A DNA stretch of 64,000 nucleotides from Gemmatimonadota bacterium (GTDB lineage Bacteria > Gemmatimonadota > Gemmatimonadetes > Longimicrobiales > Gaopeijiaceae), in NCBI GenBank assembly GCA_030827315.1, contig JAURER010000009.1, positions 1 to 64,000 on the forward strand, written 5' to 3'. Each line of letters starts with the position of its first letter. Position 1 is the stretch's first letter. Shown here in pieces: positions 36,420 through 45,545 of the stretch. The notes below the pieces were generated by a model that made no database searches, was not told the origin of the DNA, and worked only from the letters and a program-made list of their open reading frames with translations. The position numbers and the translations under genes are program-made.

Positions 36420-37358
36420 TCAGCCCAGTCGCTCGCGTTTGCGCAGGTAGGCGCGAAGCGCCATCGACAGCGCCCCGTCCGTGTCGACCACGTGGTAGTC
36501 GATTCCGTGTGGTCTGAGGTCGCGTTGCCATTCCGCCAGCGCCTGCCGCACGGCTTCACGGTATTCGGAGCGGATGTCCGCGACGCTCACCAGGAGCTCT
36601 GCATCCGACTCCGGATCGACGAAGCGCGCCTCGGATCCCGGCGGCAGCTCGCGCTCGCCCGGGTCGATGAGATGGAAGACGAGTACCTCGTGTCCGTGGT
36701 GCCGCAGGAAGCGCAGCGCGGTCAGGGTCTCCTGGCGGGCCACAAGGAGGTCCGAAATCAGAATGACGAGTCCGCGCCGATGCAGTCGCACCGCGAGGTC
36801 GCGAAGCGCGGTTTCGGCGGACGTCCGGCCCCGGGCCTCGATCGCGCGCAGGCGGCGCACCGCCTCGTGCCACTGGCGTCGCCCCCCCCGTGCCTGGAGG
36901 CGGTCGACGACCGTGTCGTGGAAGGCGGCCATGCCGACGGAGTCGCCCTGACGCAGGAGCACGAGCGCGAGCGACGCAGCGAGGTGCTTCGCATACCACA
37001 GCTTCGTCGGGAGGACACCGGGGTTCGAAGTCCATCCCATCGATTCGCTCACGTCCAGCAGGAGGTGGGCCCGCAGGTTCGTTTCCTCCTCGAACTGCTT
37101 GACGTAGTAGCGGTCGGAGCGCCCGTACATGCGCCAGTCGATGTAGCGCAGGTCGTCGCCGGCCTGATACGCTCTCAGTTCCGCGTATTCGGCCGAGAAC
37201 CCGCGGTGAGGCGAACGATGAAGCCCCATGATGAAGCCCTCGACGACCTCGCGCGCGATGAGCTCGATACCGCCGAGCTGCGAGAGCGTGGCGGGGTCGA
37301 GGAGGTCGGCGCGGAGGCCGGCTCGGGTCTGGGGCCGCGTGTCGTTCATGAGAGCCAT
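36420..37358 (-). CDS. DUF58 (VWA-like) protein
   Basis: Cytoplasmic 312-residue protein of the DUF58 family. The family core [20 protein letters not shown] (53-72) and [16 protein letters not shown] is followed by a VWA-like fold with MIDAS DVSES (Asp102, Ser104, Ser106). Family members work with MoxR-type AAA ATPases, perhaps in metal insertion or protein maturation. It leads the 11-gene leftward run; 108 bases separate it from divergent lepA. ATG codons at 37358 and 37349 are both possible; neither has a clear ribosome site. Confidence 0.85.
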
Positions 37359-37466
37359 GGAAGCTACCGGCGGGGTGGCACGCCCTCAACCGGACGGGTC
37401 TACGGGTGCGCATGGGGCTCGGTTAACTTTTGCGCCCCGCACGTCCACTCCGTCCCGAAACGTCCG

Positions 37467-39265
<1,799 letters not shown>

Positions 39266-39269
<4 letters not shown>

Positions 39270-40249
39270 GCCACCGCTGGCTGATCGGCGTTGATATCGG
39301 CGGCACGAACCTCGTGGTCGCCGCGGTCCCGTACACGGGTGGCGAGCCCGCGGCCGTCCGCTCGCGACCGACGTCGCCGGGCCGCGGAGCGGATGCGGCC
39401 GTCGCCGACATCGCCGAGATGGCGGAGGAAGTCGTCGCCGAGACCGTGGAGCGCCACGGCGCCCGCCGAGAGGACTTCCGAGGTGTCGGCATCGGGTGTC
39501 CCGGGCCCCTCGATCGAAGAAAGGGTGTCATCGGGACGAGTCCCAACCTCCAGTGGGATGGCTACCCGATCCGGGACCGCATCTCCGCGGCGGTCGGGCT
39601 TCCGGCCTCTCTCGACAACGACGCCAACTGCGCCACGTACGGCGAGTGGTGGCAGGGGGCCGGACGCGGTACGGCGTCCCTGGTCGGTGTCACGCTGGGT
39701 ACAGGCATTGGCGGAGGGTATATCGAAGCTGGCCGCCTGCTTCGCGGGACGAGCGGCAGCGGGTGCGAGATCGGGCACATGACCATCGACTTCGACGGTC
39801 GCATGTGCGGGTGCGGCAACCGCGGGTGCCTCGAGGCGTACGCCTCCGGACCGGCCATCGCTGCGCGAGCCCGGGAAGGACTCGAGGCGGGGAGGACATC
39901 CGTGATGCCCGAGATGGTGGGAGGCGATCTCTCGCTCGTCACCGCGGCCACCGTGTACGAGGCGATCCAGGCCGGCGACGCGTACGCGAGCGAAGTCCTG
40001 ACCGAATCGGCGAGAATTCTCGCCGTCGGGCTGGCGAACGTGATCAACGTCTTCAACCCCGAGATGATCGTGATCGTCGGCGGGGTCACGCGGGCGGGAC
40101 GCTATCTGTTCGCGCCGCTCCGGGAGGAAGTCGGCCGACGGGCGTTCGGGAGCGCGGTCGAGGCCTGCACGATCGTGCCCGGCGCGCTGCCTGCGACTGC
40201 CGGAGTCATCGGGGCGGCGGGCGTGTTCGTGATGGAGCGCCACCGCTGA
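39266..40249 (+). CDS. ROK-family sugar kinase, glucokinase-like
   Basis: Cytoplasmic kinase of 327 residues of the ROK family. The N-terminal phosphate site is DIGGTN (10-15). Other marks are [13 protein letters not shown] (about 74-86) and the zinc-binding block [20 protein letters not shown] with its His and CxCGxxGC cysteines, which marks ROK glucokinases and related hexose or N-acetyl-hexosamine kinases. The [12 protein letters not shown] motif supplies the catalytic Asp. Exact sugar not decidable; glucose is the most frequent for this build. The ATG overlaps the lepA stop (ATGA). A second kinase follows 14 bases downstream. Confidence 0.88.
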
Positions 40250-40263
40250 GGCGGACGCTCGGT

Positions 40264-41223
40264 GTGGTCGGCACGCTCGTGTGGGACCGGATCGTGGCCC
40301 ACGACCGGTCGGGCGAGGTCGTCGAGCGTTGGGGCGGGATCGGGTACGGGATCGCGGCGGCCGCAGCGGCGCTTTCGAGGCAATGGCGCGTGCTCCCCAT
40401 CGTCCGCGTCGGGCGAGACATGCACGGTCACGCCCTCGACTTCATCTCGACGGTCGATGGGGTCGACGCCTCGGCGATGCTCTCGGTCGATGCCCCCACC
40501 AACCGCGTGGAGCTTTGCTACCACTCCGCTTCGGAGCGGACCGAGCGCCTTACCGGAGGGGTTGGTTGCTGGCCGTGGGCGGAACTCCGGACGCGCATTG
40601 CGCGGTGCGACGCCCTCCTGGTGAATTTCGTCTCCGGCCACGAGGCGACGCTGGAGACGACGCGCCGCCTCCGCGGTGGCTTCAAGGGCCCGATCTACGC
40701 GGACCTGCACTCGCTCTTTCTCGGGACCCGGGCGGACGGGACCCGCGTACCTCGCCCACTCGACGATCCGGAGGCCTGGGTGCGCTGCTTCGACGCCGTG
40801 CAGCTGAACGAAGCGGAGGCGCGCCTCGCACTGCCCGGCGGTGCTTCGTCGGAGCGCATGCCGGACGTCGCGCTCGGCTGGGGGGCCGGGCTCGCCGTGG
40901 TCACCGGTGGGGAAGCCGGCGTGCGGTGGGCTGCCCGCCGGGACCTGAACGCCGACCCTCTGGCCTGGCGCACGGCGGGCGGCGGCCGATCCCCGGTGCC
41001 CGGGGCGCGCGTCGTGACCGGAAGCGTTACCATCTCATCGGCTCTGCGGGGAGACCCGACCGGGTGCGGCGACGTGTGGGGCGCGGCCTTCTTCGGCCGC
41101 CTCCTCTCGGGCGACTCGATCGGCACGGCGGCGGAGACGGCGACTCGGTTCGCGGCTCGCAACGTTGTGCATCGTGGGGCCGACGGTCTTTTTCAGGCGC
41201 TCCTGCACGAGGTGGTTCCCTGA
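40264..41223 (+). CDS. PfkB-family carbohydrate kinase
   Basis: Ribokinase-fold kinase of 319 residues. The N-terminal glycine-rich stretch GGIGYGIAAAAAALSR (about 25-40) is the sugar-side lid region and the C-terminal DPTGCGDVWGAAFFGRLL (about 263-280) is the PfkB signature with the catalytic Asp in GCGD. The middle has the domain expected for nucleotide binding (AVVTGGEAGVRWAA). Sugar unknown. The start is GTG at 40264; no ATG is available and the ROK gene stops 14 bases before. The next gene begins with overlap, so the kinase is embedded between a sugar kinase and a signalling-like pair. Confidence 0.8.
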   Translation: MVGTLVWDRIVAHDRSGEVVERWGGIGYGIAAAAAALSRQWRVLPIVRVGRDMHGHALDFISTVDGVDASAMLSVDAPTNRVELCYHSASERTERLTGGVGCWPWAELRTRIARCDALLVNFVSGHEATLETTRRLRGGFKGPIYADLHSLFLGTRADGTRVPRPLDDPEAWVRCFDAVQLNEAEARLALPGGASSERMPDVALGWGAGLAVVTGGEAGVRWAARRDLNADPLAWRTAGGGRSPVPGARVVTGSVTISSALRGDPTGCGDVWGAAFFGRLLSGDSIGTAAETATRFAARNVVHRGADGLFQALLHEVVP

Positions 41224-42131
41224 ACGTCATCGCGGTTCCCGGTTCGCTCGATCACCACACGATCGACGCATTCTTCGATGAGGTCGTCGGCCGTGCCGGC
41301 GATCGGGTGCTCATTGACGCGCGCCACCTTCGATGGGTGGATCCCGACGGCATGGTGGGGCTTCTGCTCGCGGGCACCATCGCGGGGCGGGAGCAGGCCG
41401 CGCTGCCTCGACTCGGGCTTCCCGAGAGCCACGACGTGGTGGGGTACCTTGCGCGCATGGGCTTCTTCGAGGCGGCACGCGGGATCTACGACTTCGACGC
41501 GCCCGCGCGCCGGGCCTCCTCTGGTGGACGCTCGGACGTCCTGCTCGAGATCACCTCGGTGTCCTCGAACGCCGACGTGCATGAGGTGGTGGACCGGGTC
41601 CAGGGGCAGGCCGGGGCGATTCTCACGTCCAAGCTGGGGTACCCCGGGACGGCCGCGGTGCAGTTCTCCGTGATGCTGTCGGAGCTCTGCCAGAACATCA
41701 TCGAGCACGCGGACGCGCCGGGCTGGGTCGCTGCCCAGGCGTACAACTGGGCGAAACGACTGGGGCGGTTTGTGGTCGTGATCTCGGTGATGGACGTGGG
41801 GCGCGGATTCCGGGGCTCGCTGGCCGGGGAGCACTCGCTGCGCTACGGAGACCGATGGGGTGACTCGACGGCCCTCGAAGCCGCGTTTCTGCACGGCCTC
41901 ACCCGCTTTCCCGACTCGGGCCGCGGCCAGGGGATCCAGCAGATCCGAAAGCAGGTGAGACGCTGGGACGGCGCCATCACGATCCGCAGCGGAACGGCAC
42001 GGATCGGGCAGGTGCCGGAGTGGGACGACGCGCCGCCGCTCGTCGACGGACTGGCCCCGCTGCCCGGCGCCCAGGTGAGCATCATCCTCCCCGCCAAGGC
42101 CACCGATGCGTTCGGCACGGGGGGCGCATGA
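41220..42131 (+). CDS. STAS domain fused to HATPase (Bergerat) domain, partner-switch-like
   Basis: Cytoplasmic protein of 303 residues not matching a named gene. Residues 1-80 form a STAS-like fold (RVLIDARHLRWVDPDGMVGL, 29-48). The anti-anti-sigma motif DSSG reads DPDG (41-44), so Asp43 stands at the phosphoserine position. Residues about 95-300 form an anti-sigma-type ATPase: N box ELCQNIIEHA (155-164), G1 box MDVGRGF (Asp192) and G2 box GRGQGIQQIRKQ (about 235-246). Kinase and its target-like domain are thus in one chain. The start is uncertain: a CTG at 41220 overlapping the kinase stop (CTGA) keeps the first STAS strand, while a GTG at 41307 would remove it. Confidence 0.75.
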   Translation: MNVIAVPGSLDHHTIDAFFDEVVGRAGDRVLIDARHLRWVDPDGMVGLLLAGTIAGREQAALPRLGLPESHDVVGYLARMGFFEAARGIYDFDAPARRASSGGRSDVLLEITSVSSNADVHEVVDRVQGQAGAILTSKLGYPGTAAVQFSVMLSELCQNIIEHADAPGWVAAQAYNWAKRLGRFVVVISVMDVGRGFRGSLAGEHSLRYGDRWGDSTALEAAFLHGLTRFPDSGRGQGIQQIRKQVRRWDGAITIRSGTARIGQVPEWDDAPPLVDGLAPLPGAQVSIILPAKATDAFGTGGA

Positions 42132-42730
42132 CCGACGTTCCGCGCGACCCGATCGCCATCGACGTGGGCGAGGTGCTCGGCGAGGTCCTGTCGGATGTGA
42201 AACGGAGCGTGACGTCGCTCTATTCCAGCCTGGTGACGCGTCCGACCGGCCGCGCCGTGCGGAGTGCGATTCAGTTGCAAGTCGAGGGCGCCGGGACGGT
42301 GTCGCTGTCGCTGATCGACTTCTCGGAGGTCTCGATCATCGACTTCTCCTGCGCCGACGAGGTCGTGGCGAAGCTCCTGCAGGAATACCTCGACGACGGC
42401 CCTCCCGACGCCTACTTCGTCTTCAGCGGCGTGCACGAGCCACATCGTGACCAGATCGAAACAGTCCTTACCCGTCAGGCGCTCGCCGCCGTGGTGGAGA
42501 CGCATCCCGGAGTGTTCGGCCTGCTTGGAAAGCACTCGGCGGGCGAGGCGAGGGTCTGGGGCGTGCTGGAAGAACACGGTGCGATCGACGCCGAAGAGGT
42601 CGACGCGCTCCTCCCGGGAGCGGAAGACCGCGAGGCGCTCGGTGGACTGGTCCGTCGGCGCCTCGCGTTCCGCAGTCCCGCCTCGGGGCGGGTGCACGCG
42701 CTCAGCCGGCTCGTACACCACCTACTCTAG
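42128..42730 (+). CDS. STAS-like (DUF4325-type) protein with winged-helix-like C-terminus
   Basis: Cytoplasmic 200-residue protein whose ATG overlaps the STAS-HATPase stop by four bases. Residues about 45-110 look like a STAS/DUF4325 fold: SLSLIDFSEVSIIDFSCADE (59-78), with Ser74 at the position that is phosphorylated in anti-anti-sigma factors. The C-terminal 80 residues (VWGVLEEHGAIDAEEVDALL, then LGGLVRRRLAFR) fit a winged-helix pattern, so the protein may bind DNA or a partner. It is the natural substrate candidate for the ATPase encoded upstream, which is inference. The PLP enzyme gene follows 22 bases downstream with its own ribosome site. Confidence 0.7.
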   Translation: MTDVPRDPIAIDVGEVLGEVLSDVKRSVTSLYSSLVTRPTGRAVRSAIQLQVEGAGTVSLSLIDFSEVSIIDFSCADEVVAKLLQEYLDDGPPDAYFVFSGVHEPHRDQIETVLTRQALAAVVETHPGVFGLLGKHSAGEARVWGVLEEHGAIDAEEVDALLPGAEDREALGGLVRRRLAFRSPASGRVHALSRLVHHLL

Positions 42731-42752
42731 AACTTTTCCCGCGGAGCGATCC

Positions 42753-43910
42753 ATGTCCGGATCCAGCAGCGAACGCCTCGGCCCAGCAACGCTCGGGGTA
42801 CACGGAGTCGACGAAGCAAGGATCCCCGGGGCCCCCGTCGTCCCCCCGATCACGCAGAGCGCCACCTTCCACTGGGCTTGCCCCGACGATGGGGAGCTCC
42901 TCTACAGTCGCTACGGGAACAACCCCAACCAGCTGCAGGTCTCAAGCAAGATCGCCGCCCTCGAAGGCGCAGAGGCTTCCGTAGCCCTGGCGAGCGGAAT
43001 GGGTGCCACCGCCATGGCCCTCCTCGCGCTCACGCGGTCCGGGGACCACATCGTCGCGTCGTCGCGCCTCTACGGAGCCACCCACGCGCTGCTCGCACAC
43101 GAGTTTCCGCGTCGCGGGGTCAACACCACCTTCGTGGATCCGGACGTCGGTGGGTGGAAGGAGGCGATGCGGCCGAATACCCGCGTGCTCTTCATCGAGC
43201 TTCCGGTGAACCCGACGCTGAGGATTCTCGATCCGCGCCCCCTCGTCGACGTCGCCCACGAGCGCGGCATCACGGTCGTGTGCGACGCGACGTTCGCCTC
43301 GCCCGTGAACTTCCGCGCTCTCTCGTTCGGGATCGACGTCGTCATCCAGAGTGCGACGAAGTACCTGGGTGGTCATTCCGACGTGATCGCCGGCGCCGTG
43401 TCGGGAACCCGTGCCTTCGTCGAGGAGGCGACGCGGATGTCGCGCCTGTACGGTCCCTCGCTGGACCCGCACACGGCGTGGCTCCTCGATCGCGGCATCC
43501 GGACGCTCGACGTCCGTGTGCAGCGGCACAACGAGAACGCCTTGGCGGTCGCCCGCTGGTTCGAGGCACGGCCCGAAGTGCGTCGCGTGCTCTACCCGGG
43601 GCTCCCGTCGCACCCGGACCACGACCTCGCGCGGGAACTTCTGTCGGGCTTCGGCGGGATGGTGGGCGTCGTGCTCGACGGGGGCGGGGAGGCAGCGGAC
43701 CGCTTCATGAGCCGGCTTCGTCTGGCGATCGCGGCCCCCAGCCTCGGCGGCGTGGAGACCCTGGTGTCCCAGCCGCGCTGGACCTCCCACGCGGGGCTGA
43801 CGGCCGAGCAGCGCGAGGCCCAGGGAATTCCCGACGGCTTCGTCCGCCTGAGCATCGGCGTGGAAAACGCCGAGGACCTGATCGCGGACTTCGACCAGGC
43901 CCTCGGCTGA
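42753..43910 (+). CDS. PLP-dependent trans-sulfuration enzyme (cystathionine gamma-synthase/gamma-lyase family)
   Basis: Cytoplasmic PLP enzyme of 385 residues of the Cys/Met metabolism family. The PLP lysine is Lys203 in SATKYLGGHSDV; other marks are the tyrosine motif YSRYGNNPNQLQ (about 50-61), SGMGATAMALL, and the C-terminal SLGGVETLVSQPRWTSHAG block binding substrate carboxylate. Activity could be cystathionine synthase, cystathionine lyase or methionine gamma-lyase, which sequence cannot separate; the altered YSRYGNNPNQ (usually YSRxxNPT) hints at a specialised substrate. An ATG at 42753 has GCGGAGCG before it. A second family member lies at 59203-60366. It converges on pruA with six bases between. 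Confidence 0.88.
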   Translation: MSGSSSERLGPATLGVHGVDEARIPGAPVVPPITQSATFHWACPDDGELLYSRYGNNPNQLQVSSKIAALEGAEASVALASGMGATAMALLALTRSGDHIVASSRLYGATHALLAHEFPRRGVNTTFVDPDVGGWKEAMRPNTRVLFIELPVNPTLRILDPRPLVDVAHERGITVVCDATFASPVNFRALSFGIDVVIQSATKYLGGHSDVIAGAVSGTRAFVEEATRMSRLYGPSLDPHTAWLLDRGIRTLDVRVQRHNENALAVARWFEARPEVRRVLYPGLPSHPDHDLARELLSGFGGMVGVVLDGGGEAADRFMSRLRLAIAAPSLGGVETLVSQPRWTSHAGLTAEQREAQGIPDGFVRLSIGVENAEDLIADFDQALG

Positions 43911-43916
43911 CCGCGA

Positions 43917-45545
43917 TCAGGCCTCGTCGAGAAACGGATACCGGTAATCGACCGGCGAGACGAAGTTCTCCTTGATGGACCGGGCGCTGACCCAGCGCAG
44001 CAGGTTCATCATCGAGCCGGCCTTGTCGTTCGTCCCCGAGGCGCGTGACCCGCCGAACGGCTGCTGGCCCACGACCGCGCCCGTGGGCTTGTCGTTGATG
44101 TAGAAGTTCCCTGCTGCCTGAGCCAGTCGATCGACGGCGTGGCGGATCACGCGGCGGTCCCGCGCGAAGACGGCGCCCGTGAGCGCGTACGGCGAGGTGG
44201 AGTCGACGAGTTCCAGCGTCTCCTCCCATCGGTCGTCCTCGTACACGTAGACCGTCATGACCGGCCCGAAGATCTCGTCGCACATGGAGATGTAGTCGGG
44301 ACGCTTCGCGCGGATGATCGTCGGGCGGACGAACCAGCCCTTGGAGTCGTCGCACTCACCGCCGACCAGAATCTCCGCGTCGTCGGAGTCGCGTGCGTCC
44401 TCGATGTACTTTCTGATCTTCGCGAACGCGCGCTCGTCGATGACCGCGTTCACGAAATTCGTGAAGTCCCGGACGTCGCCCATGGTGAGCGCTGCCGTCT
44501 CCTCGACGAGCGGGCCCTCGAGCTCCTTCCACATGCTCGCCGGGATGTATGCCCGCGACGCCGCGCTGCACTTCTGCCCCTGGTATTCGAATGCGCCACG
44601 CAGGATCGCGGTCTTCACCGCCGCCGGATCAGCCGACGGGTGGACTGCGATGAAGTCCTTGCCGCCCGTTTCCCCTACGATGCGCGGATAGGTGCGGTAC
44701 GTGCCCATGTTCTCGCCGATGGTCTTCCAGAAGCTGTCGAAGACGTCGGTCGAGCCGGTGAAGTGCAGGCCCGCGAACGACGGCTGGCTGAGCAGCCTGC
44801 CGGTGATCGCGACCGCGTCGCCGGCCACCATGTTGATCACGCCCGGAGGCAGCCCCGCCTCTTCGAAGAGCTTCATCACATAGTAGTTGGAGAGCATAGC
44901 CGAGTGGGCGGGCTTCCACACCACGGTGTTGCCCATCATCGCGGGGGTGCCGGGAAGATTGGCCCCGATGGCGGTGAAGTTGAACGGGCTCACCGCGTAC
45001 ACGAAGCCTTCGAGCGCCCGGTACTCGGCGCGGTTCCATATGCCCTCGTCCGAGAGCGGCTGCATGGAATAGAGCTGCTCGGCGAAGTGCGCCCCGAAGC
45101 GGAAGAAGTCGACGATCTCACAGGCGGAGTCGATTTCGGCCTGGCGAACGTTCTTGCTCTGACCGAGCATCGTCGCGGCGTTGAGCTTCGGTCTCCATGG
45201 GCCGGCGAGCAGTTCGGCGACCTTCAGGAAGACGGCGATGCGGTCTTCCCAGCGCATGGTCGACCACTCGTGGTGGGCTGCCGCTGCCGCGGCCACCGCG
45301 CGGTCGACCTCGTCGGGTCCCGCGCGATGCGCTCGTCCGATCACGTGACCGTGCGCGTGGGGCATGACGACGTCGAACGTGTCGCCCGTGCGGATCTCCT
45401 CTCCGCCGATGACGAGGGGAATATCGACGATCCGGGAAGCCTGGGCTTCCAGCTCGGCCTTGAGCTCGGCCCGTTCCAGGCTGCCCGGGGCGTACTCGAG
45501 TACGGGTTCGTTGAACGGCGCGGGGGTGGTCGGGATCCCGGACAT
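43917..45545 (-). CDS. pruA: L-glutamate gamma-semialdehyde (delta-1-pyrroline-5-carboxylate) dehydrogenase
   Basis: NAD-dependent aldehyde dehydrogenase of 542 residues that finishes proline breakdown by oxidising glutamate semialdehyde to glutamate. Length and sequence match the single-domain P5C dehydrogenase group rather than bifunctional PutA. The catalytic cysteine is Cys326 in YQGQKCSAASRAY, the general base Glu lies in IVGETGGKDF, and the N-terminal and C-terminal blocks (SPFNFTAIGANLPGTPAMMG; QPFGGSRASGTNDKAG) are typical. I chose the ATG at 45545 (MSGIPTTPAPFNEP); the open frame reaches 45980 but overlaps the divergent mrp gene. No proline dehydrogenase gene is nearby. Confidence 0.94.
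   Translation of the reverse strand: MSGIPTTPAPFNEPVLEYAPGSLERAELKAELEAQASRIVDIPLVIGGEEIRTGDTFDVVMPHAHGHVIGRAHRAGPDEVDRAVAAAAAAHHEWSTMRWEDRIAVFLKVAELLAGPWRPKLNAATMLGQSKNVRQAEIDSACEIVDFFRFGAHFAEQLYSMQPLSDEGIWNRAEYRALEGFVYAVSPFNFTAIGANLPGTPAMMGNTVVWKPAHSAMLSNYYVMKLFEEAGLPPGVINMVAGDAVAITGRLLSQPSFAGLHFTGSTDVFDSFWKTIGENMGTYRTYPRIVGETGGKDFIAVHPSADPAAVKTAILRGAFEYQGQKCSAASRAYIPASMWKELEGPLVEETAALTMGDVRDFTNFVNAVIDERAFAKIRKYIEDARDSDDAEILVGGECDDSKGWFVRPTIIRAKRPDYISMCDEIFGPVMTVYVYEDDRWEETLELVDSTSPYALTGAVFARDRRVIRHAVDRLAQAAGNFYINDKPTGAVVGQQPFGGSRASGTNDKAGSMMNLLRWVSARSIKENFVSPVDYRYPFLDEA

What the first reader, a model, noticed from the sequence alone, without database searches (positions are those of the whole stretch)
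40264..42730. Sugar-kinase pair packed against a two-protein partner-switch-like module
A PfkB-like kinase, a STAS-HATPase fusion and a DUF4325-like/winged-helix protein are laid end to end with three- to four-base overlaps, behind a ROK sugar kinase and lepA. STAS plus Bergerat ATPase pairs normally control sigma factors or stress switches; here no sigma gene is near, and two sugar kinases share the transcript. A switch that senses sugar or its phosphate and signals through the wHTH protein is a testable idea. I know of no described system with this set.
Basis: partly seen in the sequence, partly recalled or inferred. Interest (0 to 1): 0.75.

Follow-up and report, generated by a model that had tools for sequence, protein, structure and literature searches.

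The report
Class-wide kinase–STAS/winged-helix switch pair
Next to two sugar-kinase genes lies a tightly linked two-gene switch, an ATP-using protein like the kinases that control sigma factors plus a partner that joins a phosphorylation-type domain to a DNA-binding-type domain; nearly every member of the bacterial class Gemmatimonadetes has it, but the sugar kinases look like neighbours rather than part of the switch.

Summary
lepA, ROK kinase, PfkB-like kinase, STAS-HATPase (SHA, 41220-42131), DUF4325-like STAS/winged-helix protein (SWH, 42128-42730) and a Cys/Met PLP enzyme lie head to tail with 4-nt overlaps. The order is class-wide in Gemmatimonadota: SHA is in 238 of 249 genomes sampled, and SWH sits downstream of SHA in 114 of 114 testable loci. 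The kinases are less tightly bound. PfkB is upstream in 81 of 88 loci and ROK in 73 of 88, but lepA (78) and the PLP gene (69) travel about as well as ROK. Near-complete genomes have the pair without PfkB, and one family has lepA-ROK-pfkB-PLP with no pair. SHA models as SpoIIAB (Z 14.4) with an invariant ATP site. SWH has an invariant Ser74 inside a DUF4325-like domain, then a wHTH. Elsewhere in the phylum STAS, HATPase and DUF4325 are fused in one protein. Related pairs without ROK or an adjacent sugar kinase lie on Nostoc, Vibrio and Pseudomonas plasmids. Best reading: a sigma-less partner switch in which SHA phosphorylates or binds SWH, whose wHTH carries the output. The sugar-sensing idea is unproven and weakened. 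New variant of a known kind.

The parts
37452..39269 (+). lepA (elongation factor 4); start approximate; syntenic neighbour
   Evidence: upstream of SHA in 78 of 88 loci
39266..40249 (+). ROK-family kinase, glucokinase-like; 4-nt overlap with lepA; neighbour
   Evidence: PF00480 E 1.7e-66; TIGR00744 231.7 bits, cut-off 260.35; present in 73 of 88 loci
40264..41223 (+). PfkB-like sugar kinase with GDPTGCGD motif; start inferred; neighbour
   Evidence: PF00294 E 2.3e-4, below cut-off; present in 81 of 88 loci
41220..42131 (+). SHA: STAS + HATPase protein, 303 aa, probable CTG start overlapping the PfkB stop
   Evidence: overlap conserved
41220..41504 (+). SHA N-terminal STAS domain (residues 1-95); residue 43, taken as the phospho-acceptor position, is variable
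   Evidence: STAS_2 1.4e-4; TM1442 Z 10.3 over model residues 1-94; column 43
41529..42104 (+). SHA Bergerat ATPase domain (residues 104-295)
   Evidence: SpoIIAB 1til_E Z 14.4, rmsd 2.7, 134 aligned
41682..41696 (+). SHA N box E155-N159
   Evidence: invariant in 56 of 56
41793..41807 (+). SHA G1 box D192-x-G194-x-G196
   Evidence: invariant in 56 of 56
42128..42730 (+). SWH: DUF4325-like STAS domain + winged helix, 200 aa
42236..42262 (+). SWH motif T37-R38-P-T40-G41-R-A-V-R45
   Evidence: T37, R38, T40, G41 and R45 invariant in 59 of 59
42347..42349 (+). SWH Ser74 in D(F/Y)SCADE, candidate phosphorylation site
   Evidence: Ser74 invariant in 59 of 59; Ser kept in DUF4325 of the fused proteins
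42533..42727 (+). SWH C-terminal winged helix (residues 136-200)
   Evidence: model pLDDT above 90; TrmB hits in 6 of 59 members, best 3.3e-5
42753..43910 (+). Cys/Met-metabolism PLP enzyme; neighbour
   Evidence: PF01053 1.5e-120; downstream in 69 of 88 loci

Best explanation
SHA and SWH form a sigma-less partner switch. SHA's SpoIIAB-like ATPase domain is a serine kinase and reversible binder of the DUF4325-like STAS domain of SWH, and Ser74 of SWH is the phospho-acceptor. SHA's own STAS domain lacks a conserved acceptor and probably serves as a regulatory or docking domain. The phosphorylation or binding state sets what the SWH winged helix does: DNA binding, or contact with another protein. 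The pair was placed between pfkB and the PLP gene in an ancestor of most Gemmatimonadetes (or lost from family f5) and has stayed there by vertical descent. The sugar kinases and lepA are probably co-transcribed neighbours, not shown to be components. Shown: pair linkage, class-wide single-copy conservation, intact ATP site, invariant Ser, folds, domain fusion, and independence from the kinases. Inferred: kinase activity, Ser74 as the site, the role of the wHTH, the signal, and the phosphatase (perhaps the genome's one clear SpoIIE protein, or none).
For: SHA and SWH presence agree in 97 of 98 relatives; the one exception sits at a contig end. SWH is downstream of SHA in 114 of 114 loci with room. 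Genomes that lack SHA lack SWH, apart from that contig-end case. ATP-site residues E155, N159, H163, D192, G194, G196, G236 and G238 are invariant. SpoIIAB is the top structural match, Z 13.8-14.4, ahead of RsbW at 11.6 and histidine kinases at 9.8 or less. SWH matches RsbS (8.1), RsbR (7.8) and SpoIIAA (7.3) among its top rows. Ser74 is invariant in 59 of 59. Fusion evidence: 415-417 aa proteins in the same phylum carry STAS_2-HATPase-DUF4325 in one chain, DUF4325 above its Pfam cut-off. A2 matches their N-terminal part (3.7e-7) and A1 their DUF4325 part (3.7e-5; 1.2e-5 with the four-sequence alignment), against 0.12 and 0.27 for controls. Related gene pairs: Nostoc SHA homologue 2.1e-24 and its neighbour 6.4e-5, Vibrio, Pseudomonas with a true DUF4325.
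Against: No phosphatase or sigma gene is adjacent. Pfam cut-offs for STAS, HATPase and DUF4325 are not reached by the window proteins, and the SWH structural matches are near the background range. The wHTH is not basic overall (median net charge -1), so DNA binding is doubtful. No complex was modelled. STAS-type partners can act through binding to non-sigma targets, so phosphorylation of Ser74 is not certain.
Confidence: 0.6

Rival explanations
1. Sugar-sensing switch: ROK and PfkB products, or their phosphorylated sugars, control SHA, which signals through SWH.
For: PfkB is upstream in 81 of 88 and ROK in 73 of 88 loci; PfkB>SHA is an exact 4-nt overlap in 72 of 112 junctions; residual distance correlation PfkB-SWH 0.26, Mantel p 0.006. 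Partner switches tied to carbon supply exist: IcfG/Slr1861 in Synechocystis (PMC12329169) and SiaABCD (PMC7647112).
Against: lepA (78 of 88) and the PLP gene (69 of 88) are about as linked as ROK. G026 and G038 (93 and 92% complete) and G008 (87%) have the pair but no PfkB match; L053, L081, L085, L185 and L199 lack both kinases at the locus. Family f5 keeps ROK-pfkB-PLP without the pair. PfkB-SHA, ROK-SHA and ROK-SWH residual correlations are not significant. Nostoc and Vibrio pairs have no sugar kinase listed nearby; the Pseudomonas locus has a PfkB gene about 3.5 kb away, not adjacent.
Confidence: 0.12
2. Classical anti-sigma partner switch acting in trans: SHA holds a sigma factor encoded elsewhere and SWH is the antagonist; its wHTH is a structural add-on.
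For: SHA is closest to SpoIIAB, including the SpoIIAB-sigmaF complex chain 1l0o_A, Z 14.2. Three SigBFG-like sigma genes lie elsewhere in the genome.
Against: No SigBFG hit reaches the family cut-off (234.35 bits; best 132.3). The genome has a separate RsbW/RsbV/RsbU-like trio. The related Nostoc, Vibrio and Pseudomonas pairs list no sigma gene nearby. It does not account for a wHTH on the partners in two other phyla.
Confidence: 0.15
3. Phosphorylation-independent regulator: SHA is an ATP-dependent binding partner or chaperone of the SWH transcription factor, as one GHKL/STAS complex.
For: The STAS-HATPase-DUF4325 fusion suggests a stable complex.
Against: ExxxN box and invariant Ser74 fit a kinase-substrate pair.
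Confidence: 0.13

Closest known systems
SpoIIAB/SpoIIAA and RsbW/RsbV partner switches
   Same: SpoIIAB-like ATPase fold with intact ATP site; partner with a STAS-type fold and an invariant Ser; adjacent genes
   Different: Kinase carries its own STAS domain; partner is DUF4325-like with a wHTH; no sigma factor or phosphatase in the operon; sequence below Pfam cut-offs
STAS-HATPase plus DUF4325 ('ATP-binding protein' + 'STAS-like domain-containing protein') pairs, e.g. Pseudomonas plasmid pBYT1-1
   Same: Same domain order, adjacent genes, Ser before xxDE kept
   Different: Partner is DUF4325 alone without wHTH; on a plasmid
Nostoc linckia plasmid2 pair and Vibrio atlanticus pCECT7223 pair (annotated hypothetical; ATP-binding + HTH protein)
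   Same: HATPase protein followed by a STAS-like/wHTH protein of 180-197 aa; the closest architectural match found
   Different: No sugar kinases or lepA next to them; low sequence identity; function undescribed; the STAS part of the Vibrio ATPase was seen by eye only
SiaABCD of Pseudomonas aeruginosa and IcfG/Slr1861/Ssr1600 of Synechocystis
   Same: SpoIIAB-like kinase and STAS protein linked to carbon supply (PMC7647112, PMC12329169); SiaC's output is not a sigma factor
   Different: Have PP2C phosphatases; outputs are a diguanylate cyclase or SigC; no wHTH partner

Membership tests
SpoIIAB/RsbW-type kinase | Bergerat ATPase fold closest to anti-sigma kinases | tested here: met
   1til_E Z 14.4, rmsd 2.7, 134 aligned; RsbW 11.6
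SpoIIAB/RsbW-type kinase | Intact N box and G boxes | tested here: met
   invariant in 56 of 56
SpoIIAB/RsbW-type kinase | Pfam HATPase_c_2 above cut-off | tested here: not met
   16.3 bits, cut-off 27.4
SpoIIAB/RsbW-type kinase | Cognate sigma factor in the operon | tested here: not met
   none among the genes from lepA to the PLP gene, nor listed at the Nostoc, Vibrio and Pseudomonas loci
SpoIIAB/RsbW-type kinase | Serine kinase activity on the STAS partner | not testable with these tools
   needs biochemistry
Anti-sigma antagonist (RsbV/SpoIIAA) | STAS fold | tested here: inconclusive
   STAS rows lead (RsbS Z 8.1, SpoIIAA 7.3) but Z is near background
Anti-sigma antagonist (RsbV/SpoIIAA) | Pfam STAS above cut-off | tested here: not met
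   no family for the window protein; STAS_2 0.12 in 1 of 59
Anti-sigma antagonist (RsbV/SpoIIAA) | Conserved Ser/Thr at the phospho-acceptor position | tested here: met
   Ser74 invariant in 59 of 59; equivalence to the SpoIIAA Ser is by motif, not by a superposed complex
DUF4325 (PF14213) | Pfam cut-off reached | tested here: not met
   best 0.0086 in 1 of 59 members
DUF4325 (PF14213) | Profile similarity to confirmed DUF4325 domains | tested here: met
   hhalign 1.2e-5 over 74 columns; controls 0.12 and 0.27
wHTH transcription factor (TrmB/MarR-like) | Winged-helix domain | tested here: met
   TrmB hits in 6 of 59, best 3.3e-5; model
wHTH transcription factor (TrmB/MarR-like) | Binds DNA | tested here: inconclusive
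   net charge of the domain is median -1
Four-gene sugar switch | Kinases present wherever the pair is | tested here: not met

The most novel reading that the evidence does not exclude
A widespread kind of partner switch in which the substrate of a SpoIIAB-like serine kinase is itself the transcription factor (DUF4325-like domain + wHTH), with no sigma factor; in Gemmatimonadetes it has become a class-wide core regulator. It would give DUF4325 its first function.
Probability: 0.33. Interest if true: 0.68.

Novelty: new variant of a known kind. Interest (0 to 1): 0.5.

Why it matters
DUF4325 ('STAS-like domain of unknown function') has no described function that I could find in the papers held. 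The fusion of STAS, HATPase and DUF4325, the invariant Ser and the wHTH partner together make a simple, testable case that DUF4325 is the substrate or binding partner of a SpoIIAB-type kinase. In Gemmatimonadetes, a little-studied class, the pair is a single-copy, nearly universal regulator of unknown target.

Tried and rejected
1. Sugar kinases as obligate components: rejected as a requirement, since each side occurs without the other.
2. SWH as a plain RsbV/SpoIIAA STAS: profile comparison with the genome's own RsbV-like protein gave only 0.12, while DUF4325 gave 1.2e-5.
3. Rate correlation as proof of a functional link: lepA-SHA and SHA-PLP correlate most strongly after control (0.73 and 0.61), so the test mostly reports vertical descent and is not specific; ROK and PfkB follow lepA poorly (r 0.44 and 0.42).
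4. Defence system: PADLOC 'DrmA' matched SHA (2.7e-13), but only at positions 74-246 of a 1750-position model. Its first part appears to be a STAS-HATPase-DUF4325 unit, so this is domain sharing, not a DISARM gene.
5. Phage origin: no match in phages or viral contigs.
6. Promoter and terminator scan of 37000-44000 found none of either; consistent with one transcript but weak.
7. G172, G203 and G288 first looked like losses; two also lack a lepA match and the third has lepA at a contig end, so they are probably assembly gaps.
8. Papers: DUF4325 gave two incidental mentions; 'STAS-like domain' two.
A survey of other phyla's genomes was not possible because search centres must be genome handles.

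Full report
What is there. The window lies in a Gemmatimonadota genome: its closest named relatives are labelled Gemmatimonadetes/Gemmatimonadota, Gemmatimonadales or Longimicrobiales, apart from two odd titles. lepA, a ROK kinase, a PfkB-like kinase, SHA (STAS + HATPase), SWH (STAS-like + winged helix) and a Cys/Met PLP enzyme are laid head to tail on the + strand. lepA/ROK, PfkB/SHA and SHA/SWH overlap by 4 nt; 14 bases separate ROK from PfkB. SHA most probably starts at CTG 41220 inside CTGA. Across 125 distinct loci the exact 4-nt overlap recurs in 72 of 112 PfkB>SHA and 68 of 125 SHA>SWH junctions.

How conserved. SWH was found in 91 and SHA in 90 of 98 relatives, nearly always one copy each. 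In a phylum sample SHA was in 238 of 249 genomes; it was absent from all six genomes of f10, the one family sampled from another class, and from family f5. Among 88 loci with enough flanking sequence, SWH follows SHA in 88, PfkB precedes in 81, lepA in 78, ROK in 73, and the PLP gene follows in 69. With only the downstream side required, SWH follows in 114 of 114. In family f3 SHA and SWH are hundreds of bases apart and, in the locus read in full, a cyclophilin-like gene sits between them (3 of the 88 loci by similarity search).

Kinases versus pair. Genomes G026 and G038 (93 and 92% complete) and G008 (87%) have the pair but no PfkB match, while G045, G092 and G095 have PfkB and no pair. In G092 the order is lepA-ROK-pfkB-PLP with the pair cleanly missing; in G095 ROK-pfkB-PLP are together, also without it. 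In f10, lepA is not followed by these genes in the stretches that could be read. So the kinases and the pair are separable, and the linkage is that of a conserved gene block. Protein distances of SHA and SWH track lepA (r 0.91 and 0.81), while ROK and PfkB do so poorly (0.44 and 0.42).

Folds and active sites. The SHA model (pLDDT 92.7) matches SpoIIAB best (Z 14.4, rmsd 2.7, 134 residues), then RsbW (11.6); histidine kinases come at 9.8 or less. Its first 94 residues match STAS antagonists (Z 10.3). E155, N159, H163, D192, G194, G196, G236 and G238 are invariant. The residue of the SHA STAS domain that corresponds by motif to the phospho-acceptor (43) varies between Asn, Tyr, Val, Ser, Asp and Ala. 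The SWH model (pLDDT 89.5) has an N-terminal domain whose top rows include RsbS, RsbR and SpoIIAA (Z 8.1, 7.8, 7.3; borderline) and a C-terminal winged helix. Invariant residues are T37, R38, T40, G41, R45, D64, D72, S74, C75, A76, D77 and E78, with L83, L114 and G134. Six of 59 members hit TrmB, one DUF4325 (0.0086) and one STAS_2.

DUF4325 and the fusion. In several genomes of the same phylum a separate 415-417 aa protein carries STAS_2, HATPase and DUF4325, the last above its Pfam cut-off. The SHA profile matches its first part (3.7e-7) and the SWH profile its DUF4325 part (3.7e-5; 1.2e-5 with the four-sequence alignment), against 0.12 and 0.27 for controls. The Ser of the SWH motif DFSCADE falls on the third Ser of SSSFADE. 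Fusion in one chain, in the order of the two genes, is evidence that the two parts work together.

Other phyla. tblastn of SHA against plasmids found three records. On Nostoc linckia plasmid2 the SHA homologue (hhalign 2.1e-24 over nearly the whole length) is followed by a 197 aa protein that matches SWH (6.4e-5) and ends in a weak HTH. On Pseudomonas pBYT1-1 it is followed by a 102 aa DUF4325 protein (9.3e-13). A Vibrio atlanticus plasmid carries an ATP-binding protein followed by a protein with a winged helix (HTH_24 1.6e-6) that matches the Nostoc partner. None of these has a ROK gene listed or an adjacent sugar kinase; a PfkB gene lies about 3.5 kb from the Pseudomonas pair. So the pair is not tied to its place beside sugar kinases.

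Own genome. A classical trio lies on G000:C6: SpoIIE with GAF (SpoIIE 1.1e-34), HATPase_c_2 (2.9e-24) and STAS (1e-20). At least three sigma-70-type genes lie elsewhere. SHA/SWH is therefore an additional system, and no DUF4325 hit above threshold exists in the genome.

Mechanism. Shown: linkage, conservation, intact ATP site, invariant Ser, folds, fusion and independence from the kinases. Inferred from the established SpoIIAB/SpoIIAA mechanism and from Slr1861/Ssr1600, where kinase activity on STAS serines was shown (PMC12329169): SHA binds and phosphorylates SWH at Ser74, and the state of SWH sets the function of its winged helix. Non-sigma outputs are known, for example SiaC/SiaD (PMC8457831), and SypA acts on an unknown target (PMC8256260). 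Carbon-linked partner switches are known (PMC7647112, PMC12329169), which keeps the sugar idea alive but does not support it here.

Verdict. The sugar-sensing reading is weakened. The most useful product is a testable function for DUF4325.

Noticed in passing
L073:5392-5865 (and the SHA-SWH gap of other f3 loci): In family f3 a cyclophilin-like peptidyl-prolyl isomerase gene sits between SHA and SWH, breaking their direct coupling.
   Followed up: partly
L239:3350-4603; L263:1042-2418; L266:1480-2727 (minus strand): Single proteins with STAS_2-HATPase-DUF4325 in one chain, present besides the SHA/SWH pair in some Gemmatimonadota genomes.
   Followed up: partly
L233:4222-6676 (G000:C6): Classical RsbU/RsbW/RsbV-like trio (GAF-SpoIIE, HATPase_c_2, STAS) in the window's own genome, beside ksgA-like and rex-like genes and without a sigma gene called next to it.
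   Followed up: partly
PADLOC model PDLC02567 (DrmA), positions about 74-400: The first 400 positions of this DrmA model match STAS-HATPase and DUF4325 proteins, so PADLOC may report false DrmA hits in Gemmatimonadota.
   Followed up: partly
L169, L170: Two contigs titled Gammaproteobacteria carry the Gemmatimonadetes SHA at 61% identity to the window; their labels are probably wrong.
   Followed up: no
window:40264-41223: The PfkB-like kinase is divergent: below the Pfam cut-off and with no PDB match by sequence better than E 0.39, although the GDPTGCGD motif is kept.
   Followed up: partly
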